Made by a program: the position numbers and the translations under genes
Shown here: piece by piece, positions 1,312-50,500 of the stretch
Position numbering within the stretch: the first letter of the stretch is position 1
Layout: each line of letters begins with the position of its first letter
NCBI GenBank assembly: GCA_947184155.2
Contig: CAMXCT020001791.1
Coordinates: forward strand, 470,658-534,657
Direction of reading: 5' to 3'
Source: Cladocopium goreaui
Taxonomy: Eukaryota; Sar; Dinophyceae; Suessiales; Symbiodiniaceae
Length of the DNA: 64,000 nucleotides
The notes under the pieces: generated by a model
What the model was told of the DNA's origin: nothing
What the model saw: only the letters and a program-made list of their open reading frames with translations
Databases searched by the model: none

Positions 1312-4300
1312 CTTCAGCTAGCGAATTGAAGAATAGTTGTTCAAATGTGAACAATCTAAAGAAATCTCTGAAGTATTCAATTGTTTAGATGTGAAGAATC
1401 AGAAGTTGATCTCCACTGAGAATTATTGATGGAATCTACATGTGGTCTCCACATGGAATCTCCATCAGTTGGGACTGAACTCCCGGCCAAATCTCTGGAA
1501 ATCCATGGGTGAATGGTGGTCCGACTATGGGGCTTTAAAAAAAAATTAAAGGGAAACCATTTGGGATATTTGACAGCGAAATCATTTGGGTAGCATTCCC
1601 ATCCACCAGTGAGTTCAATTGTTTTCCCACTAGAATCACTAGCGAACTCCCATTTCTATTGGCTTTCAATTGTCAGCTTTGCTTACCGAAGCACGAAAAA
1701 CGAGTGACCCAGTACCCGTGGCAATGACCCTGTTGTTGCAGTATGTCAGTATGTCGATCTCTTTCCAAGAATTACCCTCTGCCAATCAAACATGGCATGC
1801 TGGAAAATTCCCCATCAATCATTTTCCCAGAAACCTCCATGGATGATCTTCCCATATGTTCATCTAGATGTTTCCATACTCTTCTGCTAAACTACAGTAG
1901 GAACTTTTAAGAGAACAGTTGTTCCATTTTTCCATGGATTACCATCTGGTAAACTGTCCCATAACTATGGAAAATCACCATTTTTAATGGGAAAATCCAC
2001 TATTTATAAATGGCCATTTTCAATAGCTTTTTGTATGTTTACCAGAGGGTACCATCACCTTCGCTCCCCGGATGTTTTCCGCCAGGGCGTCAAAGAGCGA
2101 CACGCCACTCTCGGTTCGAAGTTCCCGCAGTTGCGGGGAATTGGCGCGCCAGACCTGGCTCAAGGTCGACCCAGGAAACATCGCAACCATGTTTTTTACC
2201 CAAAAATATATAGATAAATAAGATCCTAAATAATACTTAAATAGTTTTCTATACATAATATATATATATACATATATATATACATACATACATACAGTAT
2301 ATCTTTGGGGGTTGCTACAACATACAGCGCGTGCATAGCAGAAACAAGTCCCTATTCATCCCTGGAAGAGCACCTCAGCACCAGCCCAGAAGTTGAGAAA
2401 TCCTCAGCACGGCTGATGTCATGAGTGTCGTGGCTCTGATGACCTCAAGGTTGCTGCATCTTGCTGTACAATGTGATACCCTCTGGTAATTTAACATATG
2501 GAAAGATCCACCATTTTCTAGCTGGGAAAATCCACTATTTCGACTGGGGCCATTTTCAATAGCTATTTTGACATAACCAGAGGGTAACCCAGTAAAATCG
2601 GTAAAAGATAAACCTCGAATATCAGGTTTAAGCAAAAACGGATCCACCGTCCCCAAATTGACCTGAACAATGGGTGAAGGTCAAACCATGAACCAAGAAA
2701 AATCGTTGATTCTTGCGTATTACTGGCATCAATCCCATAAATTGGTGGTTTTTTTCTCCCTGCTAGTGGCTTATTAGACCCAAACAACCAGGGTCATATC
2801 CGACATATCCAGGTAACCATGGCCCCAATGGGCTCACCAGATTCACCAAGAATCGATGCACCCAAGGCACCTGCGGAGAGATCGGAGGATTGCTTCGAAA
2901 AAAACGGGGCGCCCTATTTTAATCCACCCAACATCCCAGGGTTCATCATCAAATCATCATCGAAATCGATCAAAATCCCAGGGTTCATCATCTTCCATCA
3001 AGGACCCAAGATGACCCAAGTATCATCATCATGTTTCAACTACAATTGAAATTCTTGGGGTACACCGGTACACCGCACTTCTGGACCTGGTGACAAGCCC
3101 CTATCTTGCCGAAAAAACACACAAAAAACAACTTCGCTCTGGTAGCCGAGCATAGCTATGCAAACCGCGGCAAACAAATACCACGCAAGGTGACGCACAC
3201 CAGTTATAAGTTGGTGGACAAACCCCAGTTACTATAGTTATATCTACCATAAACCCACAGTTCACCAACTTATAAACCAACTGAGCTATCTGGGAGCCCC
3301 CTTAGCTATCAGCAAAATCAGCTATAAATGCATAGAAAACCAATTGTTTGTCTGTATAAATGAACTTAGCTATTATAAATCAACTATACCCTCTGGTAAA
3401 CCAACATAGCTATTGAAAATTGCCATTTATAGTTGATTTACCCATTGAAAATTGTGATTTTCCATAGTTTTTTGTATGTTTACCAGAGGGTAAATCCCAT
3501 GAGATCCCATAAATCTGTTTTTTGATCCCAGTAAAATACCATGAATCCACCAGATCTTCGTTGCCTCGTGGAACATCACTGGCAAATGCACTGCCTTGAT
3601 GCGATCATCACATCCAACACCTGGGATGGCGAATCTGACGATACGCAGCAGGATCCTAATGGGATATATACTGATAATGGGAATTTCTCAACGAGTGTAT
3701 ATATATATAATTATATATATATAACTTGCATATGTATATGTATATACATATAATATATATATGTGTGTGATTATGTGTGTGTGTATAGCAAATCAAGTTT
3801 CATAGCAATATATTGCAGTTTACTGTAATATATGTGACATCTTGGGGTTTGTCCGAACTATTTAGTGGATACCGCAGACAATGATCAACCACTGGATTTT
3901 TGGATTGTGGGTATGTTAGAGATTGTTGATTCGGGACCGCACGTGGAAAAATGGAAAGTGGCAGCCAAAGCAACAAAGTGAATGAACAAGCAATAATTTA
4001 TAATAATTTCATTCCTCTCCAATCTCCGCCTGTCACTTGTTACTTCATGTTATTTCCATATACATCACCACGAACTAAGCACACCCATGGCGGGTGGCCA
4101 TCTCTGTTATTTAGAGGATCAATCATTCTGAGCCTAAGCCATAGTCCAACAGGTTCCTATTCCCAATTGAAATAATGGTTTGTGGCTTGGATTTCAATTA
4201 AATTACGTCAAAATTTATATATATATATATATATGTACGTAAATATACGTGTATATACATATATATATATACATATGAATATGAATATGAATATGAATAT

Positions 4301-7300
4301 GAATATAGATGTATATACCACAATATAATAACCATGATCCTTTCCAGCCGAAAGCCACCTCATATATACTCATGGACCTATGGATATTCCTGCGGCATCT
4401 CCAATCATAGCTGGTTGTATTCCCTTGTTTCATGCTTCAAAAGCCTCGTCATATCATATGTTGTTGAAACCACCATGAAATATCACCAGTATGTGGTTTT
4501 ATCATGTTTTATCACCTGTCACCAGTATGGTTGTAGATATTGCTTGTTTGTGCATACTGGTTTATCAGTTGTGTCACCAGTATGGTACCTCCCCCCAATA
4601 TCAATCTAGGGTGTTATCAGCTTCAAGATACCCAACACATGATGACCAAATATGATACCTAACATCTTCTTAACATCTTCACCACCATCCATCACCAGTA
4701 GATCAACTCCACCATACTCGGCCCCTAGGCCCCTAGGCCGGTGCTTCCAAGCCACGCTGCCGAAACTCATCCAGGATGCGCGTGCCGTCCGCGTTGGTCA
4801 CGCGGAAGTGCTTCCGCAGCACGTCGTTCGGGCCCCTGGGCAGCCGCTGCCGCTGGGAGCTACTTCCAGAAAATGAGGTGGTTCAGGACATCAGGAGTTG
4901 CTGTATGTTGCTGTGATTTTACGTAACTTGGCCAAGATTGGCCAAGTCAAATACATTTAAGTTGAAGGATGTTTGCATCACCATGTTTTTCTTCATTCGA
5001 CATGTCGATGGCTCAAACTTGGGTACCAAAGCGGCTCGCAAATTTGGTCATTTTGAACGACAGCGATGTTTCGCAGGCAACGTCATGTTAACTAACAATG
5101 TAAACGGGTAGACAACCTTTTTCCTCGATTTGCAGAATCCTTGGCCCCAATTTCCCTGAAACTACACATACTTCACCCGAGTAAATTTGGGGTGTGGATG
5201 ACGTGGAACCAAGAAAAACCAAGGAACAGATACCACAGGATCCCGTCAAATCCCTTGAACTTCCCCTGTTCCCCGTGTTCTCCCAGGTTTTTCCCCTGCA
5301 AAAGTCTGCAGCTATGGCTGCCATGGCTGAGGCACGAGGGCTCCGCCAAAGGAAAGTTCATCTGTTCCTGAGGGGTCTGGGGAACGAACCTCTGGGCCTC
5401 TGGATTCAATGGAACATCAATGGTATAGAAAATGGAAAAAATGAATTATAAATCAAGGCTACTATATGGTACCATATGGAATTATATGCTATTATATGGT
5501 ACATTTATTATAAATCAATATAAAAGTTTATATAAATCATCTGGAATTATATGGTATTATATGCTATTATATGGTATTTTAGTATGTTTTAGTAATCCTG
5601 GAGGTCTCTGTTCCCAGTAACGTGGTTTCCCCTAAAGGGTGCTGGCTGCTGGACTTGGCAGAATCCTTGGCCCGGATCGGGCCCCAGTGAACTGCTTGGT
5701 GGTTTTAACCATCTTGAAACATATTGGTCAATGGAAAGGATGACATCCCATATATCATGGAACATATAAAATGATTGAAACCACCAACCAGTTATAGTAC
5801 TGATATTGAAGTAAGTTAATCTGTATATAGTATTAGCATATGTACGTGTATAACATGGGAATTAATATGTTAACTCAATCTATAACATGGATATTGAAAA
5901 AATATAGTACATTATAGTACTACAGTTTAAATGTTTGCCAAATATGATCGCGTATGTGTTACAGTAGAGAAACACCTGTCACCTAAGCATAGGTGACTAT
6001 ACATCATGTGGATATATATATATACATAGATAATTATATATGTGTACGTGACGTGTGTGTGTGTGTGTGCACGCACGGTGTAAGATTTCAATACCAACAC
6101 CGTGTTGTCTTTGGATTTTTTTACTGTATAACCCAATGAAAAGAAGGCTCGCCTTTAAGCCTTCAATTCTTGAGAGGCCGGACTCTGCCCATGTCCGGCC
6201 ACCAAGCTACCCTGCACAGGCCCGATCCCGTTCAATTGTCAACTAAGATCAACTACGGGATTGACTGGATGATTTGGGGCTACCCCCACATGAATTAGGA
6301 AACCCCTGTGTGGATGTCAACCATCAAGAATTGGGACATTTATTCATAGTCAGCAAACACACGTGTATATATATATATGTGTGTGTGTATATTTATATCT
6401 GGGTAAATTATAATATTTCATTAACCTGAATTAAGTTCATTATTCCCAGTGAGGTCGCAGTGAGGTCGCTATAATTTACCCAGATATATGTGGCCAGGAT
6501 GGGGGTAGTGCCCGGCGAAGTGGATTTGAACTGCGCAGGGCCACTATGTCGGTGACATAGCTGACGCTGACGAGACTTGTTTCCAAAACACAAAATCCTA
6601 AACCCTAAAACCTAAATCTGACATGGAACCCTAAGTTAGCCTTGAAAGTAAGGTCTTCCTAAAAGCGAGGGAAAAAAAAACGTGAAAAAAAAACAAATGG
6701 AAGCCATTGGAAGCCTAAAGCTTAGAGAATTGGAAAAATGTTAGACATTAACCTGCGGGCCATGAATCCATATCCAGGGCTGCTCGGATGTAGCTGGCCA
6801 AGTCTTCCAAGTAGCTGGGGCACTTCACATGCAACGTCGTAAAGTCCTACAAGCAGTGCCACGGGTCGGTTTCGATGGGGTTTAACCATGTTTAACCACT
6901 CAAAATAGGATTTAAACAGCAAGAATTTGGATGTATAGTTGATTGATGATGTATAGTTGATTGATGATGGCATATGATAGCTAAGTTGGTTTATCACTCC
7001 CAGAACTGCTAGGTTTATGGTAGATATATCGAGCTACTTAAAGGGAGTTATAAACCAACTTATTGTGGGGTCACCACCTTTGTACGCCGCGTTTTTTGGA
7101 TCGATTGGTGGGAACATGGTATGAAAAGTGGGTCAAGATTGCAAACTGCCCTCCGGTAAACTAAGAATATGGAAAAACATAGTTTACCAAGGAAAATGAT
7201 CAAACTACCGATTACCCATGCATACCCAACATTTGCTGGAGGGTATCTTCTTTAGACTTGCTTGATGAATTCTGAGCAGAATGCAAATGGAAGACAAGAA

Positions 7301-10300
7301 TGCTAGGAATTGCCGGTTTCATCCATTTCCACCAAGAGAAGCATCATTTTTCAAGACCCATGTCCTTGCATGTTTCCTCGTGTGTCTCTAGTTCATGTCC
7401 ATTTCAAGGCGTGTCCTTTAAAAAAAAAAACGTTTTGTCGTGCAAAAAGAAAACGTGGTGCAGCTGCACGGCCCTATCATGCTCCCGTGGTTTTCAGCGG
7501 TCCGACAGGCCAGGAAACACGGAATTACCTCAGCAATCGGCATGAAATCTGAGGCTGTGCGTGCCGATGTCGTGCATGAAAAAACCCATCAAAACAGTGG
7601 TTTTTCAGTGCACAAGTGGGAAGTGGGACATAGGAAATGACCAGAAAGTTTGTATTTATATAAGGTTACACTATATTACCATCTGGTTATTTAACATAGC
7701 CATGGAAAATCACCATTTTTAATAGGTAAACCATCTATAAATGGGCCATTTTCCATGGCTATGTTAAATAACCAGAGGGTATATATATATATATAGTATA
7801 TTCTCAATAAGTATGATGAAGTTTGTCTTAAGTCCGAACGGGCCCACATTGGCCATGTGTTGGAGTAAACCCAGTCAAGCCGAGTTTTCCTTCAATTCTT
7901 AGTGTCATTTCTGGTGGGAATCCCAGAAAGGTTGGTTCAAAATAAGCTACCGCATTCCACTGCTTCTTATTATCACGTTCCCATTCTGGGAAATTTCCAT
8001 TGATGGTTGGAAAAAATAGGTGCAATTTTCAGACATCCCAAAATAGTTACCGTGGTTTCCCATGGTTTCCCATGGTTTCCCATGGTTTCCCATGGTTTCC
8101 CATGTCCCCTGAACGCTGCTCGCTGTGGCCTTATGGCTCCAAGGCGCTCCACACGGGATCCGCGGGCATACGCCAAAGGGTTTCGGAGGAGGCCCAAAGG
8201 CTTCCAGTGCCGGTGGATGGAAGCCATACAGCCCAGGGCATGTAGGTCCAGTGATGGGGAATCTGATGATAGATCCAACCTGACTTCGCCAAAGGATGCC
8301 AGATGCCAGCCAGATTAGTTTAGGAGAAGAGGGCAGTTTAACCGATAGGTTAATGTTGATGATTGATGATGTGGGAACATTCTGGAATAAGTATAATATA
8401 AGTATTAGGTATTCCCTAGGTCTTTTAATCGATGAGGAATCCATCGACATAGAGGGCCTCCCTTTGCACGATAGGCTTGGCCTTGCTATGGCCACATCGT
8501 GGGGATCATGAGGGGCATGGCAATTTGGTGCCAGTTAAATAGATGTGAAAGTGTGATGTGCTGCGCGTATTGTTCTGCAAAGACAAGAAAACAGTGTTGA
8601 CACCTAGAGACGAAATGCAACAAAAAACTAATTATATATATGTGTGTGTGTGCGCGATATATTATATTATTATTTTATCATATCATATCATATGATATTG
8701 TATTAAATCATATTTTATTCTGTACTAAACATATCATACTATATTATATTATATTATGCTATATTGTGTTGTATTGTATCACATTAAATTACACTACACC
8801 ATAATATATTATGTTCTATTCTATTCTGTTATATTGTATATCATATAATGACATGTTACATCGTATTATATAATATTATATATTATATTATGTTGTATGA
8901 TATTATGTTGTATGATGATATATTGTATAATACTATTGTATTATATGTTTTGCAATTTATTATATATAATGAATATATTATGAAACGGTTTAAAGGGATG
9001 GAGGACCCCTGCGGATTTTGTAGGATGGGCCCATCTACATTATCAATTCTGGAAAAACAACCCACAAAGCTTCGTTAAACCCTGCCTTTTGAGGAAGCCG
9101 CAGGCACGCTGTTTGGGAGGCCGCAGGCACGCAAGAAGAACATGTTTCATCATAGATTTCCCAGAAACATCCCTTTTTGCAGTGTTTCACCACACTTGAA
9201 GCACCAAAAGCAAACCATTCAAAGTCCAAAAAGACGGGGAAGTTCATGGGTTTTCCCTTAAAATCCCCGAATTTCCCATGGAAATATTGGAAATCATCAC
9301 CATCTTCCCCAGTCAAAAAGGGCAAAATTTTGATGCTTGGCTTTCATACCACCAATATCCACCAATCAAAAGGCCGACCACCTCCCTGCCGGAGCAGCTG
9401 TTCGGACCCTTGCTCAACAGGTAGACCACGCCAAAGCCTTCTCCGAGTCCACAGAATTTGCCGCCCATCTCAGCATAGCCTGCTGGCTGTGTGCTGAGAA
9501 AATGTTCTCCACACCTTTTGATGGGCGAAACCAAGAGATTCTAACAGATCCCATTACAATCCAAAAGGAATTATATGGCATAGTATATTTCCAAAAAAAA
9601 ATACTTTGCTTCGAGTGATCCCCACCATGACATTTATACATTTTCTTACTGGCAAATCTTCTGACATTCTATCTGACATATCTTCTGACATTCTATTTGG
9701 CATTCTATCTGGCATATCTTCTGGCATATGATCTGGCATATCTTCTGGCATATTTTCTGGCATTCTATTTTCTGGCAAATCTTCTGGCATTTCTATCTGG
9801 CAATCTTCTGGCACTCTATCTGACATATCTTCTGGCATTCAATCTGGCATTCTATCTGGCCTATCTTCTGGCATCTATCTGACATAATCTTCTGGCATTC
9901 AATCTGGCATATCTTATCTTCTGGCATATATTCTGACATATGGCATTCTATTCTCTTCTGGGCATATCTATCTTCTGGCATATCATATCTTCTGGCATCT
10001 ATCTGGAATATCTTCTGGCCTATATCTTCTGGCATTCTATCTGGCATTCATCTGGCATTCTTCTGGCATATCTTCTGGCATTCTATCTGGCATATCTTCT
10101 GGCATATATTCTGGCATATCTTCTGGCATTCTATCTGGCATTCTATTTGGCATTCTATCTGGCATATCTTCTGGCATATCTTCTGACATTCTGACATTCT
10201 TTCTGACATTCATTTCTGTCCCATATCTTCTGACATGACCTTTGTCCCATATCTTCCTACATGAGGTCCGGCAGGGAACACTTGGCGTGGATACTCGCGG

Positions 10301-13300
10301 TTGAGGTCCGGCAGGGAACACTGGGCGTGGATGGTCGTGGTTGAGGTCCGGCAGGAACACTGGGCGGGGATGATCACTGGGCGGGGATGGTCGTGGTTGA
10401 GGTCCGGCAGGGAACACTGGGCGTGGATGGTCGTGGTTGAGGTCCGACAGCGAACACTGTGGATCGCGAGTCGCAGTTGAGCAGGAGGACGAGGAGGACA
10501 ACGAGACGAGGAGGACAACGAGAGGAGGAGGACAACGAGAGGAGGAGGACGACGAGAGGAGGAGGAGAGGAGGAGGAGGAGGAGCAGGCAACTTAGATAA
10601 AATCTAACAACCCTCACCTGGCAGGTGGGGAACTACAAGAAAATTGGATGAGTATGTCATTCATATTAAAAAGGCCATCATTCAATGTATGGGGGAAAGG
10701 GATTGCACTTGCACATTATATAACGGGGAGTTGTATGTGCCAAGTAGATCCAAGTAGTACTTATTCGGAAATCCGATGTATATAACCAGGTACGCCGAGC
10801 ATGGTTGTGGATTACCTTACTGAGTGGGATGCACATCCAATCAGAGGTGATACGCTCATTGCCCGCATAGGCACTGGATTACACACGGCGTTGTTATATT
10901 CTCAGGAAAGACATACCCCAAACCTTTGAACAATGTTCAAGCTGCCAGCTGAAGCTGGTTTCTCTGAAAAAACAGCACCCATGGTAAGCCCATGGGAATT
11001 CAAAACTCGCCCATTACATTGCCATTTACAAGTGGTGAATTCCCCATGTTCAGATGCACCTGCACCACGATGTAAGTCACCCATCCTTTTAAAGGACAAA
11101 ATATACAAAATCCACCAACCATATACCCCCGGCATCCGGAAATATGACTGATAAATCATGGTTCTTGGAATTCAAATATCCATGGTAATGATTGCGGTTG
11201 CTTTTGATTTAAAAAAACACCTTAAATCCAACTATATTAAAATCACCATTAAACATCATTAAACGCCCTTAGGACCCCAATAAACCCCAATAAATTGAAG
11301 GGATCTCTCTGAAATTCCATGGTTTTCTTCCTGGTGCTCCCTGGAGGATCATCCCACTCCTCGTGGTTCATACTCCTCGTGATCGAGAGGGTCCCGTGGA
11401 TTCTCTCATTTATGGCAACATTAACTCCACAAACACCACTTACCCTCTGGTTATGACTAACATAGCCATGGTATAGATGACCCATAGAAATAGATGGTTT
11501 ACCTGAGTTTACCCGTTCTTAATAGCATGGTGGATCTTTCCATGGCTATGTTAATCATAACAGATGTCATAACCAGAGGGTACGGGGAAGCATGGGATGA
11601 TCCTCCAAGGATTCATGATCCCATGATCCCAGGATTCTCCCATCGTCCCATTATGAAAATGTCAACCCTGGATGAATTTCAACCCCTAGCCGGGCTGATT
11701 CATTGGGAGGCTACCATATATTTAAGTATCAGAGAATGACTATTGGAGGAGTACCCCCTAATTACCCTCTGGTAATTTAACGTAGCTATTGGAAATGACC
11801 ATTAATAGTGGATTTTCCCATTAAAAATGGTGATTTTCAATAGCTATGTTAAATTACCAGAGGGTAAACCATGGTTTAGTCTCATCCGGGGTTGACACTA
11901 CCGCGGTGAGTTCGGGCCCCCAGGGCCACCTTTGTGCACTGCGTCGGTGATTAGCTTGGCCCAGGCCGCACCCTTGGCCCGCAACCGCTTCAGCGAGAAG
12001 ATCTGCATGGGCAGAGCTAGCACCTGCCGCAGCCAGGTGCGGACCCCTGGATTTTGTGGCAAAAAAAGGTGGGAAAACCATGGGAAAAGCAAAAAAAAAA
12101 ACGTGGAAAAAACACCTGCTCTAGATTCTTGATTTTCTAGCATCCCAAATTTAGATCGTGTCCTTGGGAAAATCCAACCATTTAATTAATTATCTAGAAC
12201 CGATTATTTAGTAAAGATTATGAATCAAAGTTCCTTGTACCAGTAACTATGCCTACGGCCCCTAGGTGAACATTGAAATGGGCTCATCCCACACCTGTGA
12301 TTGCCGCCGGAGAAAAAAAAAAACAATCTTTGAAGAGCGCCTCATAGCTGACATAGTACCTCTGCTCGGATATGCTTTTTGCCATAAAATCAGCCGGCCC
12401 TAGCCATCCTACTTGCTTGCCATACAGATTGGCTGCATTTCCGATTCTATGTGATACTGTACTTACTTCGTATATGCTGCCTATATCTGCCTATACGGCC
12501 CAAAACACCTGCTATGTACTTCTGCCAGCCACATACCAGCTCAGCATCCTACCATCCTCACCTGATCATCTGCCACTGCGAGGAAGTCGTCCTACATCAC
12601 AAGGGCAACGGGGTGGGTAATCTTCAGCCCGATGGCCCCGGTGTTTCCGCTCGAGCTATGCGCAATCAATGGGGGAAAAACAGACATGTGTGGAAGTCTT
12701 TACCCTCTGGTAAACTAACATAGCTATTGAAAATGGCCATTAATAGTGGATTTTCCCACTAAAAATTGTGATTTTCCATAGCTATGTTAAATTACCAGAG
12801 GGTAATCAACTGGAAATATTCATCTTCCCTGGCCCCCATAGCTCCCAAAAATGTCTCTGATGATTTTGAATATAAAAAAAATCAACATCATCAATCATCA
12901 CAAATCACCAATCACGATGAATCGTCAATCACCATTGCCATAAATCATCACAAATTATCAACTGTCAATCATCACCAATCATCATCCTCCAAATCATAAA
13001 TTCACGGTAAATCATCCTATATAATTCACCCTAAACTACCGTAATTCAATCACCCAAAAATCACCCAAAAATCGCCATAAATCATCCGATTAATCATCCG
13101 ATTAATAATCCTACAGAATCCTACATCGCCATCATCCTAGATCTCAAACAGCGTCAAAAAATATGAAAGTCAATGGGAAGGATGACATCCCATATTATGG
13201 AAAATAAAAAATGTTTGAAACCACCAACCAGTATATGTTGATTTACCCATTAAAAACTGGATGATCCCCCCTCCCCTCATCCCAAAAAAAGTCCTCGTCC

Positions 13301-13790
13301 AAGTGCTCCAGATGCTCTGCCAGTTCCGCTGGGTCGGCCAGGAAAACGTAGTCTCCTGCGGATGGGATCATCGGATCTGCTACCATGCCATTGAAATATA
13401 TAGGAGATAGATGGATATAGATTAATATAGTAGTTATATATAGTTATAATATATATAGCATAGATTAATATAGTAGTTATAGTTATAGTATAGCAGTATA
13501 GCATAGATAAATTATATAATATAGTATAGCACATCCCAAAAGATAGAAAAATCAAGTCTCGATTCATGATAGTGATAGTGATTGATTAAACTTTTAGATG
13601 TTCTTTGGGGGATGACTATAGGTTGGTCCTGCAAATCTTCCCATGCAATTCTGGGAACTGGGAAATTAACATTATCAAACCATATTCAACCATAAGAATC
13701 CTGAAAAACAAACGTAATGTTAAATACCCAGATTCTGGACCTCAAAATGAATGGACCAAATACTAAACCACTGGGTCCACCGCGGTAATT

Positions 13791-13821
<31 letters not shown>

Positions 13822-16800
13822 TAATTAAATATTAAAGGATAGTGTTCTATACTTTTCTCGGGGCTGTTCAATGTCGTTCACCCCATTCGTGACTGGAGAA
13901 ATTGGACCATATGGTGCCAGCAAACGGGGGCCACTTCTCAATTTCCAGAGCGGCTCCAGCATCCACCCAGATCAGCGCATCTTCAGCTTCGGATTGGGGC
14001 ACCACCAGGTGAGGAAACATCCGCAGCCATCCTGCGACGTTGGGTGGCGGAGGTGGCATGAAACGCACCGACAAATGTTCAAGCGGAAAGGGATTCACAG
14101 ATTCACACGATCCTGGGGAAAAAAAAAGGTTGAAAAAAAAACAACACAACAACAACTCTTCAATTCTTCTATATTATTCTGACTTTGCAGGCTCTTCCAG
14201 TTCTGTTCCGAGGCCGCTCCCAAGGCCCCAGCTTCCCAGCTTCCCCACACCATTGCGCTCCTGCACTGCCGTAGTGACTGGAGAACTGCAAGCAATCCTC
14301 CGGCACCAGCGCGTGGATTTCTTGCCAGGCATCGAGCTCCTCCTGCTGGTAGAAACGGAAGGAACCTGCGATGTGCGGAAGGAAACTTGCGGATTTTTTC
14401 GGTCGGGATTACCACCATAAATTGCCTTTTCAAGAGGGAACATTACCCCTCTGGTAAACTAACATAACTATGGAAAATCATCATTTTTAATAGGGAAATC
14501 AACTATAAATGGGCAATTTTCAATAGCTATGTTAGTTTACCCGAGGGTATATTCAACCAAATTTGAAGGGTGTCCCTCTCAAATTGTCACATAAACCCAT
14601 GAAGGTGGGTGACGGGAAGATTTCAAACGTGTGCACCATCGCGGCAAAGCCGGTTTCCCCTGGAACCCTCCGCAGCCTTTGGCCCTTAAATTGGGTTCCA
14701 GCTCCTGACCATGGGAAAGCAAAGTGATCGCTTGACTGCAAAAAACCATCGGCCTCGAGACTCCTTCTTTCTCTTTTCCTCCTTCCTCCTCCTCCTCAGT
14801 ATCATCATCATTGTCTCCCTTCAAAAATCTCGAGGCTGGAGACTGTCTCCGGGTCTAGTTTCCAGGTCAGTCGGTCACTATGAACCATAGCCATATTCAC
14901 CTCCGGTAGTCACCAGCAAATCACCAACTTGATATCCATCATTTCGACTCCTTCACGGCTTCCTCACATCCTCCTCCCCACGTGTATGGCCATGTGTTCA
15001 CCATTCTATTTACCCCTTCCCCCCCATTCATCAAATTTTCACCCATCAACCCCATGAACATTGCCAAACTCAGCTACCCAATCATCGCCCATCCTATCAT
15101 ATCCCATCATTCTCTCCAGTAGTCACTAATCGAACATATATAATCCCATGATATCCCATGATTATCCCTATGAAAACTGGAAAAAAACACATACAACCCC
15201 ATCATATCCCATCATTCTCTCACATCAAACCCATATTAAACATTGTTAAACCACAAAAAATCGCATCCCCCATCGACCCCATCGGCCCCATCCCATCTCC
15301 TTTAAAGCTTCCTTCACGTCCTGCTCCCCCAGGCCATCCACCACCAGGTGGAATCGCAACGGCCGTGTCTCCGCGAAGAACAGCGCCGAGCGGATGCCGG
15401 CCAGCGCCTTGCGGCCGAAGGCCGGGAAGCCCACGGAGGCCACCTGGCGGTATGTGCAAATGTGTATGTATATACCTGAATCTTCATTCGGACATTAATG
15501 TCTGCCTTTTCAACATTATATGCCTGAAGGGGGTGTCGGACAGAAAATCTGACTGCGGGCGGAATTCAGTTTCAACAATCGAAAACATTGAAATGCTGTA
15601 TTTTTGGGGAAAATGAATTCGGGCGGAATTGCACGTGATTCGGGCGGAAACACACGTGATTCAGGCGTAAATGGCCGTAACGATTTTTTTGAGAACACAA
15701 AGATAATTTTTTGGCTAAAGTGGGTTCGGGCGGAATTTGGAGCCTTAGGCGGAATCCTCAGATTCGGGCAGATTTCCTGACTGAATGCATTCAGACTGAA
15801 ATTACTGACTGCACGAAGATCTAGGTATATGTGTGTGTGTGTTGCACATAAATATGTGCCATTACAATATCTATATATATATACATATGTATATATATAT
15901 AGATATATAGATGGTTTGTAAAAAATATATATATGACTTGAAACATGAGAGCAAGGTTGAGTCCCTTCAGGTCGTGGTCTCATCCGTCACGTCCGCACCA
16001 TGGCCAGGTGCACCGGCGCGCCATCGCCCCCGGCGCGCCACTGCAGCAGGGAGCGTTCCTGCAGCAGCTGCCACCAGCGGCTGCTGGCGCTGCGGAAAAG
16101 CTCCCGCGCCTGACCACGCCATCTGTCACCAAGGGAAGATTACATTTGGGGGTTTCCTAAAATTGGGGATCCCCAATTATATCAATTATGTAGGTTTCAA
16201 TACTCAATGGGAATTGGAATTACTATTGGGAATTCCAGGATCTTAAATTGGAGGTACTGTACCATTTTTCAGGCCATTTTTTTGGGGGATATTCCCTAAA
16301 AAATAGGCCTAAAAAAAAGGCCTTATATGGCCTTATATATGGTAGGTACCTCCAATTTAGGATCCTGGAATGGCCATTGATTTGGGGGTTTCCGAAAATT
16401 GGGGATCCCCAATACCGTAGGTCTCAATACTAAACTGACTTAATTTTGGATGATTTGGGGCCATTTGGGGTACCCCTATTGAAGGAAACCACAATTTATG
16501 GTAATAATGGGATATAACAAACAATAATGGGTGAAGAATGTGTTGTATGATTGTTGAAGCTATAGAAATTCCAACATATATCCCACATAATCCAACAGGT
16601 GGCCTAGTTATGCTTATCAACAGAAATCATCAGAAATCTACCTGTCGTATGTTGATTGCTAAAAATGTTGGGAGGCATATCACCCTTCGGTAACCAAACA
16701 TGATCAAACATGGCAAGCCGGAAATCCCCGCACTAAATGGAGCTTTGGATGGGGAACTCAACTTTAAATGGTGAATTTCCCATGCATTATCGTATGTGCT

Positions 16801-19800
16801 AAGCGTAGAATATTATACATCCTGATTCATCTATTTTCCATCATTTATTCTGCACTATTCATCCATCATCATGATTACCAATAGATATCATCTTCTTCCC
16901 AAAATTACACCTGGAATGGCATAATTAAATTTAATTAACATGTATTCCTAATGATACAACAATTATTCCCCATGTTTGAGCCATAGGTAAATTCTCAACC
17001 ATAGATATCATGAAATGGATACTCATGATTAACAGGAATACATTCATTCTTCATGAAATCATTTTCCGTTACTCGCCCATTATCATTCATGGAATATATC
17101 CGAAGATATTTGTATATTATCAATATTGCCATAGATAACCATAATTCTGTAAGTATACCCTGCAGTAAATTAACATAGACCCTGCCAGATAGGGGTTGGA
17201 AGACTAGTTTCCACTAAACAATTGGTGATTTTCTGGGTCGAACTGTGAATTTACCAGAGGCTACTTATTATCAATAAATAATTATGCTAATTATATATCC
17301 CTAGGTATAATCAATGTTCTTAATTATACATATTCTCCATAGATATTTCATCAATATCTATGCCATAAAATATCATAATATATACATATCTATATCTATA
17401 ATCCCTAAAAAATACCTTCTGGTTATTTAACATAGCCATGGTATAGATGGCCCATAGAAATAGATGGTTTACCTATTAAAAATGTTGATTTTCCATGATT
17501 TTCCATGGCTATATTAAATAACCAGATGGTAACTATATAACCATATTTTTCATTCTCCATACCCTCTGGTAAACTAACATAACTATGGAAAATCACCATT
17601 TTCAATGGGAAAATCCACTACAAATCACCCTTTTCAATAGCTATGTTAATTTACCAGATGGTATATCCCACTAATATTCCCATGATTTTCCCATATAAAA
17701 CCATATAAAACCTCCATTTCTGGTGGATCAACCTCCATTTTCATTCTCCATAGATCTCATCTTCCCTGTTTTCCCGATCTTCTCGCCTGGAACGCCAGGC
17801 TGTGCCAAGGCGATAGCCACGTCAAGGCCACCTGCAGCAGCGCGACTCTCCATGCCTGGCCGGAGCAACGTTGTGGTCCCGGTAAGGGGCCTAAACCTAT
17901 CCCCAAAATGGGGAAATCACCAGCAGAATCTCGATTCAAGATGATATAAGATGGTTTGAGCTGGTTTAACTTGCATGTAAAATGGGCAAAAAGGGTCAAA
18001 AAGGCTGGACTCCAGTACCAAAACTTCGGGATTTCAGTGGCAAAATATAGGGCTTTCCCCACCTGAAGGCTGAACTCGCCGTCGTCCACCAAATCTAACC
18101 ACCCAAAGCGGAAGATGGGAGACAACGATGAGGACAAGGCCACCTGAGGGAGCTGCCAGGATGGCATTGATGGTCCTAGGTCCATCAATGAGTCCAAAAA
18201 AAAATGAAACGTCCATCTTAGATAACCCCATTATAATATTGTTTGTGAAATCTCTGAATGTGGTAATCCCATAAAAAAAACAACTAAAATTTAGGTGTCA
18301 TTTTACATCCAATAAAGATGGTAATCACCCAATGCCTTAAAACCTACCACTCTCTCTCTCTCTCTCTATCACCTTCAGGCAGATGTCTGCCCCAGTCCCT
18401 TGTTGGGATAGTTCATTATTGGGTTTACCACACGAATCGAATATTGTAAATAGCCACAAATAGCCTATGTTAAGTTGCATCCCACGTGTATTTCCATTGA
18501 TTTTACGTATGGATTTCTTAATCCCACAGTGTCATTTCCATACAGGTTTCCCATGTATAATTTCCACTTGGATTTCCATCTTATCGAACTATTTCCATAG
18601 TTGCCTCCCGTTGATTTTTTCAATTTTCCATTGTACCATCTGGTTATTTAACATAGCCATGGAAAATCATGGAAAATCACCATTTTTAATAGGTAAACCA
18701 TCTATAAATGGGCCATCGAAAAACCATGGCTATGTTAAATAACCAGAGGGTATATTTATAGGGATTATAGATATAGATATGTATATATTATGATATTTTA
18801 TTTAACATAGCCATGGAAAATCATGGAAAATCACCATTTTTAATAGGTAATCCATCTATTTCTATGGGCCATCGAAAAACCATGGCTATGTTAGTCATAA
18901 CCAGAGGGTATATTTATAGGGATTATAGATATAGATATGTATATATTATGATATTTTATTTAACATAGCCATGGTTAAAATCATGGAAAATCACCATTTT
19001 TCCCACATCTTCCCACAGTTCATGATCCCAAAGCGTCTCCCCTTTTGGAGTCGCTGAAATGCACCTCAGCTGCCCGCATGAACGGATCACAGGCTGGCGA
19101 CGTCGCGCAGTCCATGGCGGACTCGGTCGCCTCGCCATGTGGCGGCCATGGGAGCGCCGTGGTGGGATGGTGGCATGGTGGGAAAAGATGAGGGAACTAT
19201 TCAATGGGAGATCTCCAGGATCCTAAAATGGAGGTACGTTAGTACCATTTTTCAGGCCATATTTTGTGATATTCCCTAAAAAATAGGCCTAAAAAATCGG
19301 CCTTATATATGGAATCGGTACCTCCATTTTAGGATCCTGAAATTCCCATTGAACTATGGGGACAATGATGGGGGAACTATAGGATAGCTATGGATAGCTT
19401 ACGTGTGGTAAGCTAAATGGGAGATTTTGGGGTGATGATCGGTATGGTTCTGGACTGGGTAAAGGGGTGTTTTTGATTTTCTGTGATCGTTGTGGTTGCG
19501 GTTATCATTCAAAGGCAGTTTCACCCATCATTTTCGTGGAAAACATGGCTGATGCTAGCTGGATAAACCCCCAATACCTGGATATTTACATATTCATCTG
19601 TAAATATGATTTTTCCATTGCCATGCTTGATTACCGGAGAGTATGATATTGGATTACACTGAGTACTTGATTTCTTTAATAATGGCCAAATCTGATGACT
19701 GTGCGTCTTCATTTTTTGTTGGTTATGGTCCTGGTTTGTGAAAAACATAAGAAATCGATTATGGTTGTGTCTGTGTTCCTTCTAATACATTGGAATATGT

Positions 19801-24285: not shown

Positions 24286-24316
<31 letters not shown>

Positions 24317-28430: not shown

Positions 28431-28524
28431 TTCTTGATGATTCTCACTGCCGGCAAAATCAATCGTATCCAACAGCGGCTCTTTGTCTTCCGCAGCAAAA
28501 TGCCAAACACATCCCGGCTCTGAC

Positions 28525-29695: not shown

Positions 29696-32600
29696 TCACT
29701 TCCCCCACATCCTTCGGTGCAGTATAAAGAAATGCTGCAGAGCCGCTGTCGTAACAGGTCCTTGGCATGTGGAACAGGCAGAAGGCAAACAAAAGATCTC
29801 CAATCAAATCCAACCAACATCAATAAGTCAATAAATTGTATGGCATATGTATATATAGAGTTTCCATTTTGATAGCCTGCTGCCAATCCTGCCATCTAAA
29901 CATCTATCCGAATCATGAATTCAGGATTCAAACTCATGAAAATCAAGCAGAACATAGATTTCAAAATTTGACATAGATTCTGACATAGATGAAAATAGCA
30001 CAAACCTTTACCCAGTGGGCCACTCCTTTCTTCAGTTCCACCGAGATCCACCAAGTTTCACGAAAAAAACACATCGCATTTTTGGGCCAAAGTGCTACCT
30101 TCGAGGAGCTCTCGTAGGCAATGGACAAAGCGCCAGCAGGTCTGTTGGGTGCTGGGGAAGAAGCGAGCGAACCTGGTCGTTTTGGCTGTTGGGATTCATT
30201 CAATTCACCAAAATGCATTCAAGAAAAGGCTAAAGGCAATGAATGGAATTAGCAAAATTTAGCAAACTTGGTAAACTTCACTTACTCCGACATGCCCAAA
30301 CAGTCTTTCTGTCTGTTCTGCTCCCCGATCCCAAACAAGACCTTCGTCAAATATGATATCCCAACATTCCCAACATTCGCTCTCACTATGAGCAAGTTTC
30401 AGCCACGTGACATTCCAGCAATCTGATGATCAGTGGCATGGGAAAATTCTATGTGCAAATCGGCTCGGCCATTGCGAATCAACGCGGGATTCAGCCGATC
30501 ACGGTGGTTGGTCGTGAGGACGAAAATTTGGCCTGCACAGGAGAAAGGTTCAAAGGGGTGAGCCTCTTGTGTGGTATACCGGTATACCTTTTCAATGTGA
30601 TTCAATGCGAAACCAACAACAATTCAGAATCCAGAATTCTGGGACCCTATGGAAATCTATGGAAACCTATGGAATTCTCAGCCAATTCTGCCAAGTTCAT
30701 CCATGGTTTTCCGCTTTACCAAACTTCGGGCGTTCGCACACCGGACACCTTCAGCTTTGCCGACGCCGTCCAAGGCGTTCAGGAGGCCTGGCAGCGGCGT
30801 GCCCACGGTTCTAGGCAGCATTGGATAGACCTATTACGAAAGTATATCTATATATATATATAATATACCCATATGCTCCATGGTGCTGGAATATTTACCA
30901 ACATTTGCCATAAAAATCACCCAAATTAGGTAAATATAAATATAATTAAATATAACATACATGGAGCATATGGGATAGACATTGTCAAGTTTCTCATCAT
31001 TATGGTATGTATATGCAATTGTATACTTTATTATCCTTCCAAGCCTCCGGTTCTTTTGATTCGCTATGAGCATCAGAGTCTGTCTGCAGATTTGTTCGAA
31101 CTCCCAAATTGAGGAGACGTCAGAGACCTCCAACAGTTGGAACGGTACAAAACCGATTGTCCCAATATCCCTTCCATCGCCTGAAAATGTGAGGACGGAG
31201 TCAGTGAGAAGTTTCTCACGATCCTTCCCGAAAATGGCATCAATGTCTTCGAACACTAGTAACCTCGGTATATCAAGGTATGGCTCAGTGTGCTTTCATA
31301 TCTGCTCCTAGTATCTCTTAGTTGCGCTTCAATGTAGCAGTAGTGACGTAGTGTGTGTGTGTGTGCATCCACAAGTCTCAAAAACAACTGACTCGACTGA
31401 CTGCTGGCAAACCGGTACCCTCTGGTGAACTAACATAGCAATGGAAAATTGCCATTTATAGTGTATTTTCCCATGAAAAATGGTGATTTTCCATTGCTAT
31501 GTTAGTTCACCAGAAGGTAAATCCCGCAAGAAAATCATCCAGCCCACTTTCATAGCAAACCAATGCAAATCGTGCATACAGTATCTACAGCGTATCTGCG
31601 AAGAATATCGATAAATCATGATACAGATACAGCATGATACAGCAAATCGTTAACATATTCTAACAGTCTTTGTTCGAGGGACGAATGGCGTGGTGCCTGG
31701 TTCACGGCAGCTCTCAGAGATTCATCCGTCAGATTTGGATGCGTCAAATGCAAATGGCCTCGGGCGATGGATTTGGGTATCAAAAATGGGCTGTCAATAG
31801 ATGCGCAAAACTGCCCATTCTTGGTATGAAAATGTATATGAAACCATCCGTTTTTGTGGGGCAGCATTGTTTCTCGCACTTTTGAGAAATCTCGGGGCTC
31901 AGGCACAGGTTGTGCTTGAAATGGCCAGCGATTGCCTGTATGAGCCTGACACGACAAGCACTTTGAGCCGAACTTCGAATAATTAGAAACGACATCTATA
32001 TATTGACTGACATATACAAGTAGAAATCTTCAGCAGAGTCTGGCAGTCCCAGTTGCGACGTCTTGCCAGATCCAGGAACTCCGTAGAAAAGGTAGCCCCT
32101 CTTGTGCTGAATGCCGTGCTCCTGGTGGAGTCCAAACGACTGCCAAGACATGCCAGGACCAGAAGCACCGTTTTGAGCAGGTCTTGAATCTCCCTCGAAG
32201 GCCTCACATGTCAGTGAGTATCAGTGAGTAATGTGAGTAACGTCTTGACAGGTTCTCGTCGGATCTCCTTGTACCACCGTCGGGTGTCTTCTCCAAGGAA
32301 CTCCTCAATGTCACCCAACAGCCTCTCCTTGACTCCTCACAGTGCTGGAAGGGTGGTGCCAACGTGCCGATAATATCAACAACTCAAGAGATTCATCATG
32401 GCTCGTCATGACTCATCTGCCCCTCGGAAGCGCAAAACTGGACCAGGATGACTCAGGACTCAGCACCGCACTGATGACATGATATTGTGTGGCACATTGT
32501 GATACTATGATTTTGTCAGTCAGGAACATATTTTTTCCATCTGTTAATTTAAAAGAATACAATGAATACAAGAAATCAATGTGTCCATAGGGCCAAAAAA

Positions 32601-34888: not shown

Positions 34889-34997
34889 TACCCTCTGGTT
34901 ATTTAACATAGCCATGGTATAGATGGCCCATAGAAATAGATGGTTTACCTATTAAAAATTGTGATTTTCCATGGCTATGTTAAAAAACCAGATGGTA
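34889..34997. mobile_element. Family-1 element, copy 16
   Basis: Ends TACCCTCTGGTTATTTAAC and AAAACCAGATGGTA; GGTTAT subtype with the CCCATAGAAATAGATGG insert shared with copies 5 and 9. Confidence 0.8.
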
Positions 34998-40707: not shown

Positions 40708-40900
40708 TGGAACCCCTGAAATGATGTGGGCAAAATGGCCGGGTAGATACGATAAATGTCTGGAAAAAGGTGCAAGATTACAATGTTAATGGGTTTGCCT
40801 AGGAAAAGCACCGAGGTTAGAACATATTTTGCAGACTATACCCTCAGAGTGGAGTTTGTGATTGGGTCTACCACAAAACTGGATAGATTCCGGCGTTCAA
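40708..40900 (-). promoter_or_regulatory. Short intergenic spacer with trans-splice acceptor
   Basis: Only about 190 bp separate the stop of the channel gene from the ATG of the SHWWGE-LRR gene on the same strand. The sense strand has ATCATTTCAG ending 10 bases before the ATG, a good spliced-leader acceptor. No TATA-like element is evident. Consistent with co-oriented dinoflagellate genes processed by trans-splicing. Confidence 0.5.
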
Positions 40901-44939: not shown

Positions 44940-45031
44940 TACCCTCTGGTAATTTAACAGTTTGCTATTGAACATGGCCATTGAAATAGTGGATGTTTTC
45001 CCATGAAATTCATGGTGGTTTTCTATTGATC
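44940..45031. mobile_element. Family-1 element, copy 17, decayed
   Basis: Left end TACCCTCTGGTAATTTAAC is intact; the body is recognisable but the right end is lost. Confidence 0.6.
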
Positions 45032-45227
45032 TTTCCCATCAGTTTTTTGTAAACGTTGACCGGGCACTTTGCAATCCCCACTGCAGCTGCCAGAGTCTGG
45101 ACCCACAAAAAATTACCCGCCTGAGACTGAGAAAAATACTGCAGGGACGGTGATGTGATATGACTGGTACATATACTGGTATACATATATATATATACGG
45201 TAATAGTAATCATAAATATTAAAGGTG

Positions 45228-45260
<33 letters not shown>

Positions 45261-45264
45261 GCAG

Positions 45265-45340
45265 AGCAAGCGGGCGACATTCTGGGCAACAACAGCAACC
45301 CTTGGGGCATCGCCAGGATGCGAAGCCCTACAATAATTGA
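45265..45340. repeat. Dispersed repeat, copy 2
   Basis: GCGGGCGACATTCTGGGCAA followed by CAACAGCAACCCTTGGGGCA; preceded by a CAA microsatellite (45226-45262). Confidence 0.75.
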
Positions 45341-47519: not shown

Positions 47520-50500
47520 CTAGCTGTTGCTTGCTAGACTCCCGCTTCGTGCTGACTGCATCTCGAATTTCCAGTCAAAACCTTCCAGCAAATTTGGCAG
47601 ATACGTGATCAATTCATGCTGCTCCCACAACGACCCAGCTTTAGTCATCCTCAAATACATCAAACGCTCTTCGTAGATGTCCCATTCGTTTGTTCTCTTT
47701 GATGTTCCAGTTTAATCCGAAGCACCTGCCCAAATAAATCATATACCAGCTACGATCATAATATGTACATCCATCATCATCTATCCATAGTGAGACACAC
47801 CATGTCACAACCTTCATCCCCATAGGGCTCCTGAGTTGACATGAGGAAAATATCCGTATTCCATCCCATTCTTCATAGCTATTCCGGTATTCCTATGTCA
47901 GTTTCTACGTTCAAAAAATTATAGAGAGCGTAACCAAATAGGGGATATACTAAAGTGAGCACAGAAAACAATCCTCGAGAAGTATATCGTAAATATACGG
48001 TAACTACATTTAAATATACAGATTTTTAAATATACGAACTGGATTTTAGACTACCTCCGGGAAAGTTTTCCGTAGCTCGCCTGGCCACTTGAAGATATAG
48101 GTTTTATGGAAGATTTATAGAGGATTTATGGAAGATTTTTACAGGATTCATGGAAGACTTATGGAGGATTTATGGAGGATTTGTGGAGGATGTATGGAGG
48201 ATTTGGAGGATTTGTGGAGGATTTATGGAGGATTAGGTATGCCGAATACTAAACTAACACTATATAAGAGTTTGTAAAATCCTCACTATGTGATGGGATG
48301 TGTACACTTTAATTAAGGACTAACCCCTTACTAAACATCAGGACCCACCCACTCACAATCCCCATATTTTACCACCTACAGCCTATAGCCTATAGTACTT
48401 TACGAACTCCAGGGTAGGCTGAAAATTTCTTTGGAGGTCCTTAGCTAATGGTTCAACTGTGCTTGAATCGACATTTAGATATGCGGAACGGGCCCAGCCA
48501 TTTAAACATACGGATGGAACTGGTGTTTCATACTACCTCCGGGGCCTCGCAGTCTGGCCCGCCCTCCACATATTTAAATGTCGTTACTATTCCGGTATTC
48601 CTATGTCAGCTTCTACTTTCCCCAAAAAAATCACCGAACCCATCCTCAAAAAATTATAGAGAGCGTAACCAAATAGGGGACATACTAAAGTGAGCCCCGA
48701 AAACAATCCTCAAGAAGTATATTGTAAATATAGAGGAAACATCTGTTTTGCGCGTAAATGGTGCCCCTAATTATATGACCCAACCTTCAGAAGGCGATTT
48801 CACCTAGTTTTTGCACATGGTTTCTCTTCAGAAACCAGGTCCCGGCCATGCCATGCCATGCCGAAATTGCCGGAAAGTCCCAGGTTCGTCCTAAACGACA
48901 GCTGCATTTTAAGCGCCGCCTCAGAGTTTGGAACACCAGTCCATCTGAACCACTTCACCTAAGGGAAGTGAAACGAACTGGGCGTGGCCAGGGTGAAATA
49001 CCAACATTGCTAAATATAATTGATGATAATAAAAGTAATAATTAAAATAATAATGATAATAGTAATATATATATATATATATGCACATTATAGACATGTA
49101 AATGCATATGTATATATAATACCATATAAATTATATATACAGTATCTCTGTGTGTTTGATTGTCTGTGTATATCTAATATGAATTGGTTGGACCCCATGT
49201 TCTCATAAACCCACCGAGCCACTCATGATTTGCAAAAATTCGATGAAGCCCGCCGTCGGTGGCAAAGAATGGTGCCCCGTGCCGAAAATCGCGTGGTGGA
49301 AGATCGTCCGCAACTGATCCATGTGGGTATCCTGAGTGCCCACTCGCCTGGCTATGTCTCAAAATCCCTGTAGTTGTGTTCACATCTCACATCAAAACTG
49401 CATCTCGTGTTTTTTCTTGGGAAAAACATAATCATATGATCTTTGCGGTATTTTCACTTCACAGCTAAGTGTTATTGATCGTATTTCTGGATAGCGGCGT
49501 TGAGCGGAAAGCTCTTGCAGAGCATCTGGCGGATCTGGTCCAAGGTTAATCGCTGTGTGTTCTCCTGCGCCCGTGATCCCAGACGTGGTGAGGATTGGGC
49601 AGCACAAAAAAAAGCACAGGCATAATCCCATCACCCTAATATTCAACACCCCAATTGCATGGTCCAAATTATGTGGAAATTCATGGAAATTCCCTACTAA
49701 GCCATGGTTTCGTTAAAGGGGTGTTTAATATTAGGGGGAAAGGATTAGTTAAAAGATGTTAAAAGATGTTAAAAGCTATAGTTTTTTTAGGACTGATGTT
49801 TAAGGTCATCTAATGGATGCGTTCCACATAGATTGCATGAGCATAATGTACTGTGGTTCAATCGTCCAAATCAAGTCAACTAGATCAAGTATGATCAAGT
49901 CAAGCCAATTGAAACCCAAGAAATGCTGATACGGTTTTATAATGTTTTATATGATTCAACGAGGATTTTTACAGAGGGATAATCATGTGTCCTGTTGTTT
50001 TTTTCGGGATAATAATCCATATATTTACACGATGAATTACATGCTGGTCATGTGTAATGTCAACCCTGGATTAATAAAACCCTAGGCTGTTTAATTGGGG
50101 GGGGCACCATTTAAGTATTGGATTATGACTATTGGAGGAGTACCCCCCCCAAAAAAAAATAAACCATGGTTTAGTCTCATCCGGGGTTGACATTACCCTC
50201 TGGTTATGTCAAAATAGCTATTGAAAATGGCCATAGAAATAGTGAGTTTTCCCATGTTTTCCCATTAACAATGGTGATTTTCCATAGCTATGTTAGTTTA
50301 CCAGAGGGTAAATCACTTTGCGATTGAAAAAAAAAACAAAACCGTCGAACCCTTGGCCGATCCCCAAGGGATCATCAAAGATCCAGCGCTCGGGCCAGCT
50401 GTCAATTCTCCCGTGAAAACCATGGGGAAAACATCCGAGTCATCGTTGGGAAAGTCCCAGAAATCTGGATTTGATGGTGAAATCTCCAGATGTTTGATGG

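What the first reader, a model, noticed from the sequence alone, without database searches (positions are those of the whole stretch)
1940..50310. A multi-copy inverted-repeat family whose ends carry GT and AG on both strands
About 18 copies of a roughly 104-bp element with ends TACCCTCTGGTAA...TTACCAGAGGGTA. Because the element is nearly palindromic, each strand reads CTG-GTAA at one end and TTACCAG at the other, so a copy offers a GT donor and a CAG acceptor in either orientation. This is the architecture proposed for introner elements (DNA transposons that create introns) and matches reports of such elements in dinoflagellates. All copies in resolved genes are inside larger introns, so here they are not shown to act as introns.
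Basis: partly seen in the sequence, partly recalled or inferred. Interest (0 to 1): 0.85.

Follow-up and report, generated by a model that had tools for sequence, protein, structure and literature searches.

The report
Very abundant hairpin transposon in introns
A roughly 106-base, self-complementary DNA transposon remnant occurs in an estimated hundred thousand or more copies in a dinoflagellate-type genome; where genes could be resolved it sits inside introns instead of making them, so it looks like an ordinary, if very successful, non-coding transposon.

Summary
The repeat is real and understated. The window holds 21 copies (19 full length). In the 1.17-Gb assembly the 13-base end matches 204,829 times (reversed control 1,901), which scales to about 120,000-155,000 copies. 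Four empty-site alignments, for three copies, show a single TA, so the target duplication is TA. Copies are ~106 bp, AT-rich and near-palindromic with conserved TIRs: a MITE using the TA target of Tc1/mariner elements. No cognate transposase was found.

The introner reading is not supported. Sixteen copies lie in introns whose ends I mapped, in a 21-exon gene and a BCS1-type gene. None ends at a splice site; the closest is 34 nt away. Five more lie between coding segments of a two-pore-channel gene. Splicing at the element's own ends would leave +13 or +11 nt, a frameshift. One predicted splice scar occurs twice in the genome (control 4), both in element debris. The other occurs 261 times (control 110); 20 of 261 were inspected and all 20 are element ends with an extra G. 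GT and AG are there because the TIR reads CTGGT. I rate this a new, very abundant member of a known kind. Splicing by rare copies is not excluded without RNA data.

The parts
1048..1153 (-). element copy, divergent, 106 bp, downstream of the last resolved exon
1940..2051 (+). element copy, 112 bp, downstream of the last resolved exon
2477..2586 (+). element copy in intron 20 (2854-2403) of the 21-exon gene
3387..3492 (-). element copy in intron 19 (3564-2871); empty-site counterpart at window 413-450 (38 bp, 92%) with a single TA
7147..7245 (+). divergent element copy in intron 16 (7502-6847)
7677..7781 (+). element copy in intron 15 (8147-7529); near-perfect foldback
11441..11582 (-). element copy with expanded interior, intron 13 (11929-9480)
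11763..11866 (-). element copy in intron 13, nested in a second repeat; uninterrupted counterpart at window 50085-50197 carries a single TA (with an 8-nt length difference just left of the junction)
12701..12804 (-). element copy in intron 11 (13293-12592)
14445..14549 (+). element copy in intron 8 (about 15297-14366; boundary ambiguous)
17156..17263 (-). element copy in intron 6 (17786-16110)
17413..17531 (-). element copy in intron 6
17560..17663 (+). element copy in intron 6
18634..18752 (+). element copy in intron 4 (19064-18144), part of a 158-bp tandem duplication
18799..18910 (+). partial element copy in intron 4
21850..21954 (-). element copy in intron 2 (23509-21816), 34 nt from the acceptor: the closest approach to a splice site
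24679..24782 (+). element copy in intron 1 (25446-23631; boundary ambiguous)
31416..31519 (-). element copy inside a GC-AG intron (31696-31284, ends read by eye) of a BCS1-type AAA ATPase gene
34889..34997 (-). element copy, gene context unresolved
44940..45027 (-). partial element copy, gene context unresolved
50194..50310 (-). element copy at the right edge of a second repeat, gene context unresolved
2371..25517 (-). 21-exon gene (homologue: unnamed 581-aa Symbiodinium natans protein P0001); 15 element copies (14 full length, 1 partial) in 11 of its 20 introns
30402..32336 (-). BCS1-type AAA ATPase gene (extent of the coding pieces used); spliced model matches BCS1 6sh3 at E=3.6e-32

Best explanation
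A non-autonomous DNA transposon (MITE) that inserts at TA dinucleotides and duplicates them, as Tc1/mariner-superfamily elements do. A transposase supplied in trans, not found here, is inferred to recognise the conserved terminal sequence CCCTCTGGT. Copies are short foldbacks of about 106 bp built from a limited set of arm modules. They have amplified to roughly 120,000-155,000 copies and persist in AT-rich non-coding DNA, including long introns, where they are removed with the surrounding intron by that intron's own GT/GC/GA donor and AG acceptor. The CTG|GT and CCAG motifs at the ends follow from the TIR sequence and are not shown to be used as splice sites. Shown: copies, TIRs, TA duplication (from few sites), copy-number estimate, intron locations in the resolved genes. 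Inferred: transposase type, mobilisation in trans, lack of own-end splicing genome-wide.
For: 13-mer ends 102,327 forward and 102,502 reverse against control 922 and 979. Terminal TA at both ends in 68 of 79 full-length copies, no flank match beyond TA above chance, and four empty-site alignments with a single TA for three copies: 11763-11866 vs window 50085-50197 (78.6% over 117 columns), 3387-3492 vs window 413-450 (92%, 38 bp), and L016:3263-3372 vs L018:546-634 (75%) and vs window 6978-7059 (73%). Strong foldback in six of six copies folded. Element GC 0.36, flanks 0.39-0.41; density falls with GC over 50 5-kb bins, Spearman -0.72, but only -0.34 (p 0.09) in the 26 bins from loci chosen without regard to the element. 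Fifteen copies in the 21-exon gene sit in 11 of its 20 introns, 34 to over 2,000 nt from splice sites; one in a BCS1-type intron; five between coding segments of a two-pore-channel gene in L018.
Against: No transposase with these TIRs was found: PF01359 gave no match (its control was silent too), and none of the 16 loci fetched for PF13358 and PF03184 shows the TIR as a pair of ends around the gene; L055 has one lone element end near its edge. So the Tc1/mariner assignment rests on the TA duplication alone. The empty sites are few, were sought only in 0.29 Mb of held sequence, and two are 73-75% identical; one further junction-spanning hit (L009:761-864 vs window 691-748) has a 10-nt gap near the junction and does not show a clean site. 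Five window copies have no resolved gene context. No RNA data were available.
Confidence: 0.9

Rival explanations
1. Introner: a DNA transposon whose copies are themselves spliced as introns, using the GT and AG carried at their ends (or one site from the element and one from the target).
For: Both ends carry CTGGT in 59 of 79 copies. TIR-bearing introners exist in Symbiodinium microadriaticum, and 12,253 recent introner introns are reported for Polarella glacialis (PMC9860276 section 7; PMC11453091 passage). Many copies lie within genes.
Against: 0 of 16 copies in introns with mapped ends touch a splice site, and the top-scoring models of the 20 introns of the 21-exon gene measure 207-2,628 nt, so none has element size. 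The residue after own-end splicing is +13 nt, or +11 with an AG|G acceptor, both frameshifts, whereas the Aureococcus introner that carries both sites adds 12 nt. Scar TACCCTCTGAGGGTA: 2 in 1.17 Gb, control 4, both in element debris. Scar TACCCTCTGGGTA: 261 against control 110, an excess, but 20 of 20 inspected (of 261) run on into an element match, weakest E 9e-4, two of them partial. AG|G acceptors are 96.1% in Cladocopium goreaui (PMC9412976 table, passage) and 17 of 20 in the top-scoring models here; the TIR offers CCAG|A.
Confidence: 0.05
2. A foldback element kept because the RNA hairpin helps long, weak-signal introns to be spliced (bringing exon ends together), that is, a domesticated intronic structure.
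For: Very stable folds. The two arms of one copy share the same 10-nt module in 13 of 79 copies against a mean of 5.2 in 5,000 re-pairings (largest 13), and within-copy arm identity is 0.571 against 0.482 between random arms. Fifteen copies in the introns of one gene.
Against: Arms differ in 66 of 79 copies, positions relative to splice sites vary from 34 to over 2,000 nt, and 9 of 20 introns of the same gene have none. Foldback form is usual for a young MITE (recalled).
Confidence: 0.05

Closest known systems
Stowaway-type and other Tc1/mariner-related MITEs (recalled general knowledge)
   Same: short, AT-rich, TIRs, TA target duplication, very high copy number, no coding capacity, frequent in introns
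   Different: no cognate transposase identified here; TIR CCCTCTGGT is not a recalled Stowaway end; almost the whole element is self-complementary and the arms are mix-and-match modules
Introners of Symbiodinium microadriaticum, family 1 (PMC9860276, section 7 read)
   Same: TIR-bearing, in Symbiodiniaceae
   Different: that family has 4-bp target duplications from which the 5' splice site is co-opted, and its copies are introns; here the duplication is TA and resolved copies lie inside larger introns
Introner elements of Amoebophrya A25 and A120 (PMC7789003, passages seen)
   Same: inverted repeats that can form a hairpin, in a dinoflagellate lineage
   Different: those have 3-5 nt direct repeats overlapping the exon/intron border and coincide with introns; these do not

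Membership tests
MITE (non-autonomous TIR DNA transposon) | short, too small to code for a transposase, terminal inverted repeats | tested here: met
   79 full-length copies, 88-142 bp, commonest length 104; conserved TACCCTCTGGT ends; foldback in six of six folded
MITE (non-autonomous TIR DNA transposon) | target-site duplication shown by empty sites | tested here: met
   four empty-site alignments with a single TA, for three copies
MITE (non-autonomous TIR DNA transposon) | high copy number of similar copies | tested here: met
   204,829 ends; about 120,000-155,000 copies estimated; median 8.2% from consensus in 30 copies of 103-106 bp
MITE (non-autonomous TIR DNA transposon) | shares TIRs with an autonomous element | tested here: inconclusive
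   three transposase families searched, 16 loci of about 3 kb inspected, no matching pair of TIRs; longer elements and other families not covered
Tc1/mariner superfamily | TA target duplication | tested here: met
Tc1/mariner superfamily | DDE/D transposase of that superfamily acts on these TIRs | not testable with these tools
   DDE_1 and DDE_3 matches exist in the genome, but the loci seen do not carry these ends
Introner | element boundaries coincide with intron boundaries (element is the intron) | tested here: not met
   0 of 16 copies in introns with mapped ends; 5 further copies lie between coding segments of a third gene
Introner | splicing at the element's own GT and AG preserves the reading frame | tested here: not met
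   own-end splicing leaves +13 or +11 nt (arithmetic on the TIR); scar searches give no support
Introner | RNA evidence for removal at element ends | not testable with these tools
   no RNA reads available

The most novel reading that the evidence does not exclude
A small subset of the more than 100,000 copies has landed in or next to coding sequence and is spliced with help from its built-in GT and AG (for example one element site plus one flanking site), so that this MITE is an occasional, still uncatalogued source of new introns or exons in the lineage.
Probability: 0.1. Interest if true: 0.6.

Novelty: new member of a known kind. Interest (0 to 1): 0.33.

Why it matters
Dinoflagellate genomes are reported to gain introns from introners, so a TIR family carrying GT and AG on both strands is a natural suspect. 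Here the suspicion finds no support in gene structure, frame arithmetic or a genome-wide scar count. What remains is a MITE that occupies an estimated 1% or so of a 1.17-Gb genome and contributes 15 insertions to the introns of one gene. It is a reminder that GT/AG at TIR ends is not evidence for an introner, and a possible contributor to long introns.

Tried and rejected
Pfam on frame translations with stops as X, minus strand 29-48.9 kb only, found an EF-hand hit and a weak AAA hit, both below Pfam's cut-offs, because exons are short; homology with joined exon pieces worked instead. A catalytic family name for the 21-exon gene was dropped: its homologue P0001 has no Pfam match and P0002 only TPR repeats at residues 624-671. 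Rfam and tRNA scans of the window found nothing. A 24-base end pattern had no match in viral contigs, where records near this genome may be left out. A target duplication longer than TA was tested and rejected. Arm covariation was looked at only through module counts. A low-copy related end (TACCCTCTGGTGTCATCAAACATGG) was counted, 436 matches, but its loci could not be fetched.

Weak points: the 14 loci L015-L028 were positions I picked (50,001-60,000 of contigs C10-C1600), not drawn at random; six other 10-kb loci (L009-L014) were chosen because they are rich in the element, and eight 3-kb loci (L001-L008) came from the pattern itself. The empty-site search listed 169 junction-spanning alignments; its output was cut in the middle, most of what I saw were AT or CAT simple repeats that I set aside, and I did not print the rest. 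Intron ends come from a script that maximises similarity to one homologue, with a small bonus for GT over GC over GA; introns 1, 8 and 17 are ambiguous. Several short exons of that gene have weak E-values on their own (0.004 to 0.97) and were accepted for order and frame. The BCS1 intron ends were read by eye. The coding segments of the two-pore-channel gene come from a score trained on 913 codons of this window; the PDB match covers query residues 3-88 and 256-353 well and the middle hardly at all, so two of the five copies (L018:3510 and 4800) are placed between supported segments but next to segments known only from the score.
Full report
WHAT IS THERE. The end motif TACCCTCTGGTAA occurs 38 times in the window with up to 2 mismatches; 1.14 are expected by chance. 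A profile search gives 21 copies at E<=1e-4, 19 of them full length (99-142 bp) and 19 of the 21 in the first 35 kb. The window lies in a 1,165,616,438-base assembly in which the 13-mer with up to 1 mismatch occurs 102,327 times forward and 102,502 times reverse, against 922 and 979 for the reversed control. In the held sequence 128 of 132 such matches lie in copies, and the 89 copies not fetched by the pattern itself carry 1.28 matches each, which scales to about 155,000 copies. Fourteen loci picked without regard to the element (L015-L028; 5 kb of one read N) hold 14 copies in about 135 kb, which scales to about 120,000. At about 106 bp each this is roughly 1.1-1.4% of the assembly.

ANATOMY. 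Seventy-nine full-length copies from the window and samples (of 97 copies found) are 88-142 bp long, the commonest length 104. Thirty copies of 103-106 bp differ from their consensus by a median of 8.2%, range 2.9-37.8%. The terminal TACCCTCTGGT is well conserved; behind it a limited set of arm modules (GTAAACTAAC, GTAATTTAAC, GTTATTTAAC, GTAAACATAC and others) is combined in many pairs. Both arms carry the same 10-nt module in 13 of 79 copies, against a mean of 5.2 and a maximum of 13 in 5,000 re-pairings. Six copies folded as RNA give -39.8 to -63.9 kcal/mol, z -7.5 to -14.5.

TARGET SITE. The terminal TA is present at both ends in 68 of 79 copies, and flank matches beyond it are at the random level. 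Joining the flanks in a script and searching the 0.29 Mb of held sequence gave 169 junction-spanning alignments; the printed list was cut, and most of what I saw were simple repeats, set aside. Four alignments, for three copies, show an empty site with one TA. The copy at 11763-11866 sits in a second repeat whose uninterrupted copy at 50085-50197 has a single TA, with an 8-nt length difference just left of the junction. The copy at 3387-3492 matches 413-450. L016:3263-3372 matches L018:546-634 and window 6978-7059, only 75% and 73% identical. One more hit, L009:761-864 against window 691-748, has a 10-nt gap near the junction and is not a clean empty site. The duplication is therefore most simply TA, the target of Tc1/mariner-superfamily transposases.

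GENE CONTEXT. Nine exon pieces joined as a query matched an unnamed Symbiodinium natans protein of 581 aa at E=3.0e-47, 38% identity over 95% of the query. tblastn of that protein placed 21 exons on the minus strand between 25,517 and 2,371; several short ones are weak on their own. A script scoring GT/GC/GA donors, AG acceptors, frame and homologue gave 20 introns of 207-2,628 nt. In the top-scoring models the donors are GT 8, GC 5, GA 7, and 17 of 20 acceptors are followed by G; introns 1, 8 and 17 have ambiguous ends. This resembles the published Cladocopium goreaui pattern (GT 36.6, GC 43.6, GA 19.8%, AGG acceptor 96.1%; PMC9412976 table, passage seen). Fifteen copies (14 full length, 1 partial) lie in 11 of the 20 introns, between 34 and more than 2,000 nt from the splice sites; introns with copies have a median of 921 nt, those without 601. 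A BCS1-type gene (spliced model against 6sh3, E=3.6e-32) has one copy inside an intron of about 413 nt, whose ends I read by eye. In sampled locus L018 a two-pore-channel gene (5tua, E=5.6e-25) has five copies (four full length, one partial), all between coding segments; exact intron ends were not mapped there. None of the 16 copies with mapped intron ends touches a splice site. Five window copies (1048, 1940, 34889, 44940, 50194) have no resolved gene context.

DOES IT SPLICE ITSELF? Splicing at CTG|GTAA and CCAG|AGGGTA would leave TACCCTCTGAGGGTA, a net +13 nt after subtracting the duplicated TA. An acceptor obeying the AG|G rule (CCAGAG|GGTA) would leave TACCCTCTGGGTA, net +11. Both break the frame. 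If it happened often, processed gene copies would carry the scars. The first scar occurs 2 times in 1.17 Gb (control 4); both sit in AT-rich element debris with stops in all six frames of the 215-bp stretch. The second occurs 261 times, more than its control (110). I fetched 20 of the first 100 listed; all 20 run on into an element match (weakest E 9e-4, two of them partial), so they are ends with an extra G. The other 241 were not inspected. The scar test sees only transcripts that were copied back into DNA, so it is supporting evidence. RNA data would be decisive.

DISTRIBUTION. Copies have GC 0.36 and flanks of 0.39-0.41. Density falls with GC over 50 5-kb bins (Spearman -0.72), but part of these came from loci chosen for being element-rich; in the 26 bins not so chosen the trend is weaker (-0.34, p 0.09). 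In the window the 21-exon gene has 0.65 copies per kb and the 38.5 kb above it 0.10.

TRANSPOSASE. PF01359 gave no match, with the control silent as well. PF13358 gave 8 matches, and PF03184 gave 150 (of 716 candidates, 150 were scored). In the 16 fetched loci, about 3 kb each, I found no pair of TACCCTCTGGT ends around the gene: L055 has one lone element end near its edge, and a few single matches with 2 mismatches occur. L056, L059, L061 and L066 show other inverted repeats of unknown extent. The mobilising enzyme is therefore unknown.

COMPARISON AND NOVELTY. By length, TIR, TA duplication and copy number this is a MITE. It differs from the Symbiodinium microadriaticum introner, which has 4-bp duplications and co-opts a splice site from them (PMC9860276, section 7 read), and from the Amoebophrya introners, whose direct repeats overlap the exon border (PMC7789003, passages seen). 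The 12,253 introner introns of Polarella glacialis are taken from a passage in a review (PMC11453091); the original paper was not seen. Searches for introner with dinoflagellate (13 papers), introner with Symbiodiniaceae (5), miniature inverted-repeat with Symbiodinium (4) and MITE with dinoflagellate, terminal inverted repeat and intron (2) showed no paper that by its title or the shown start of its abstract describes this family. Of those listed I opened passages of four; passages of PMC9412976, PMC7245778 and PMC8045281 were seen too. Repeat libraries were not searched, so the family may be catalogued already. The assembly is unnamed; its size, GC (window 0.446) and splice-site mix resemble Cladocopium, which is an inference.

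Noticed in passing
window 11658-11902 and 50056-50197: A second repeat with inverted-repeat-like ends (AATGTCAACCCTGGATGA and TCATCCGGGGTTGACA), interrupted in one copy by the element studied here.
   Followed up: partly
L009:6508-6649: A related, rarer 142-bp subfamily with end TACCCTCTGGTGTCATCAAACATGG; 436 matches genome-wide with up to 1 mismatch.
   Followed up: partly
window 57200-58240 and 61070-61520: Two tandem arrays with 64-bp periods and, by eye, related units (CCCC-TGACGACGCATT and, on the other strand, CCCC-GAAGACGAATT).
   Followed up: no
window 58352-59119 and 59121-59888: A 768-bp direct tandem duplication, 99.3% identical.
   Followed up: no
window 20632-21475: A 92-bp-period tandem array inside intron 3 of the 21-exon gene.
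   Followed up: no
G000 contigs C5566, C875, C3290: DDE_1 transposase matches repeat on one strand at about 2.0-2.1 kb, in apparent tandem arrays.
   Followed up: no
window 40904-43384, minus strand: Gene with channel-like transmembrane segments (by eye) and an EF-hand hit below Pfam's cut-off; no element copy in it.
   Followed up: no
P0005: A predicted protein from a 65,243-bp ENA contig matches the exon at window 23.5 kb exactly and its flanks closely with indels and frame changes, so a very close relative of this genome is probably held elsewhere.
   Followed up: no
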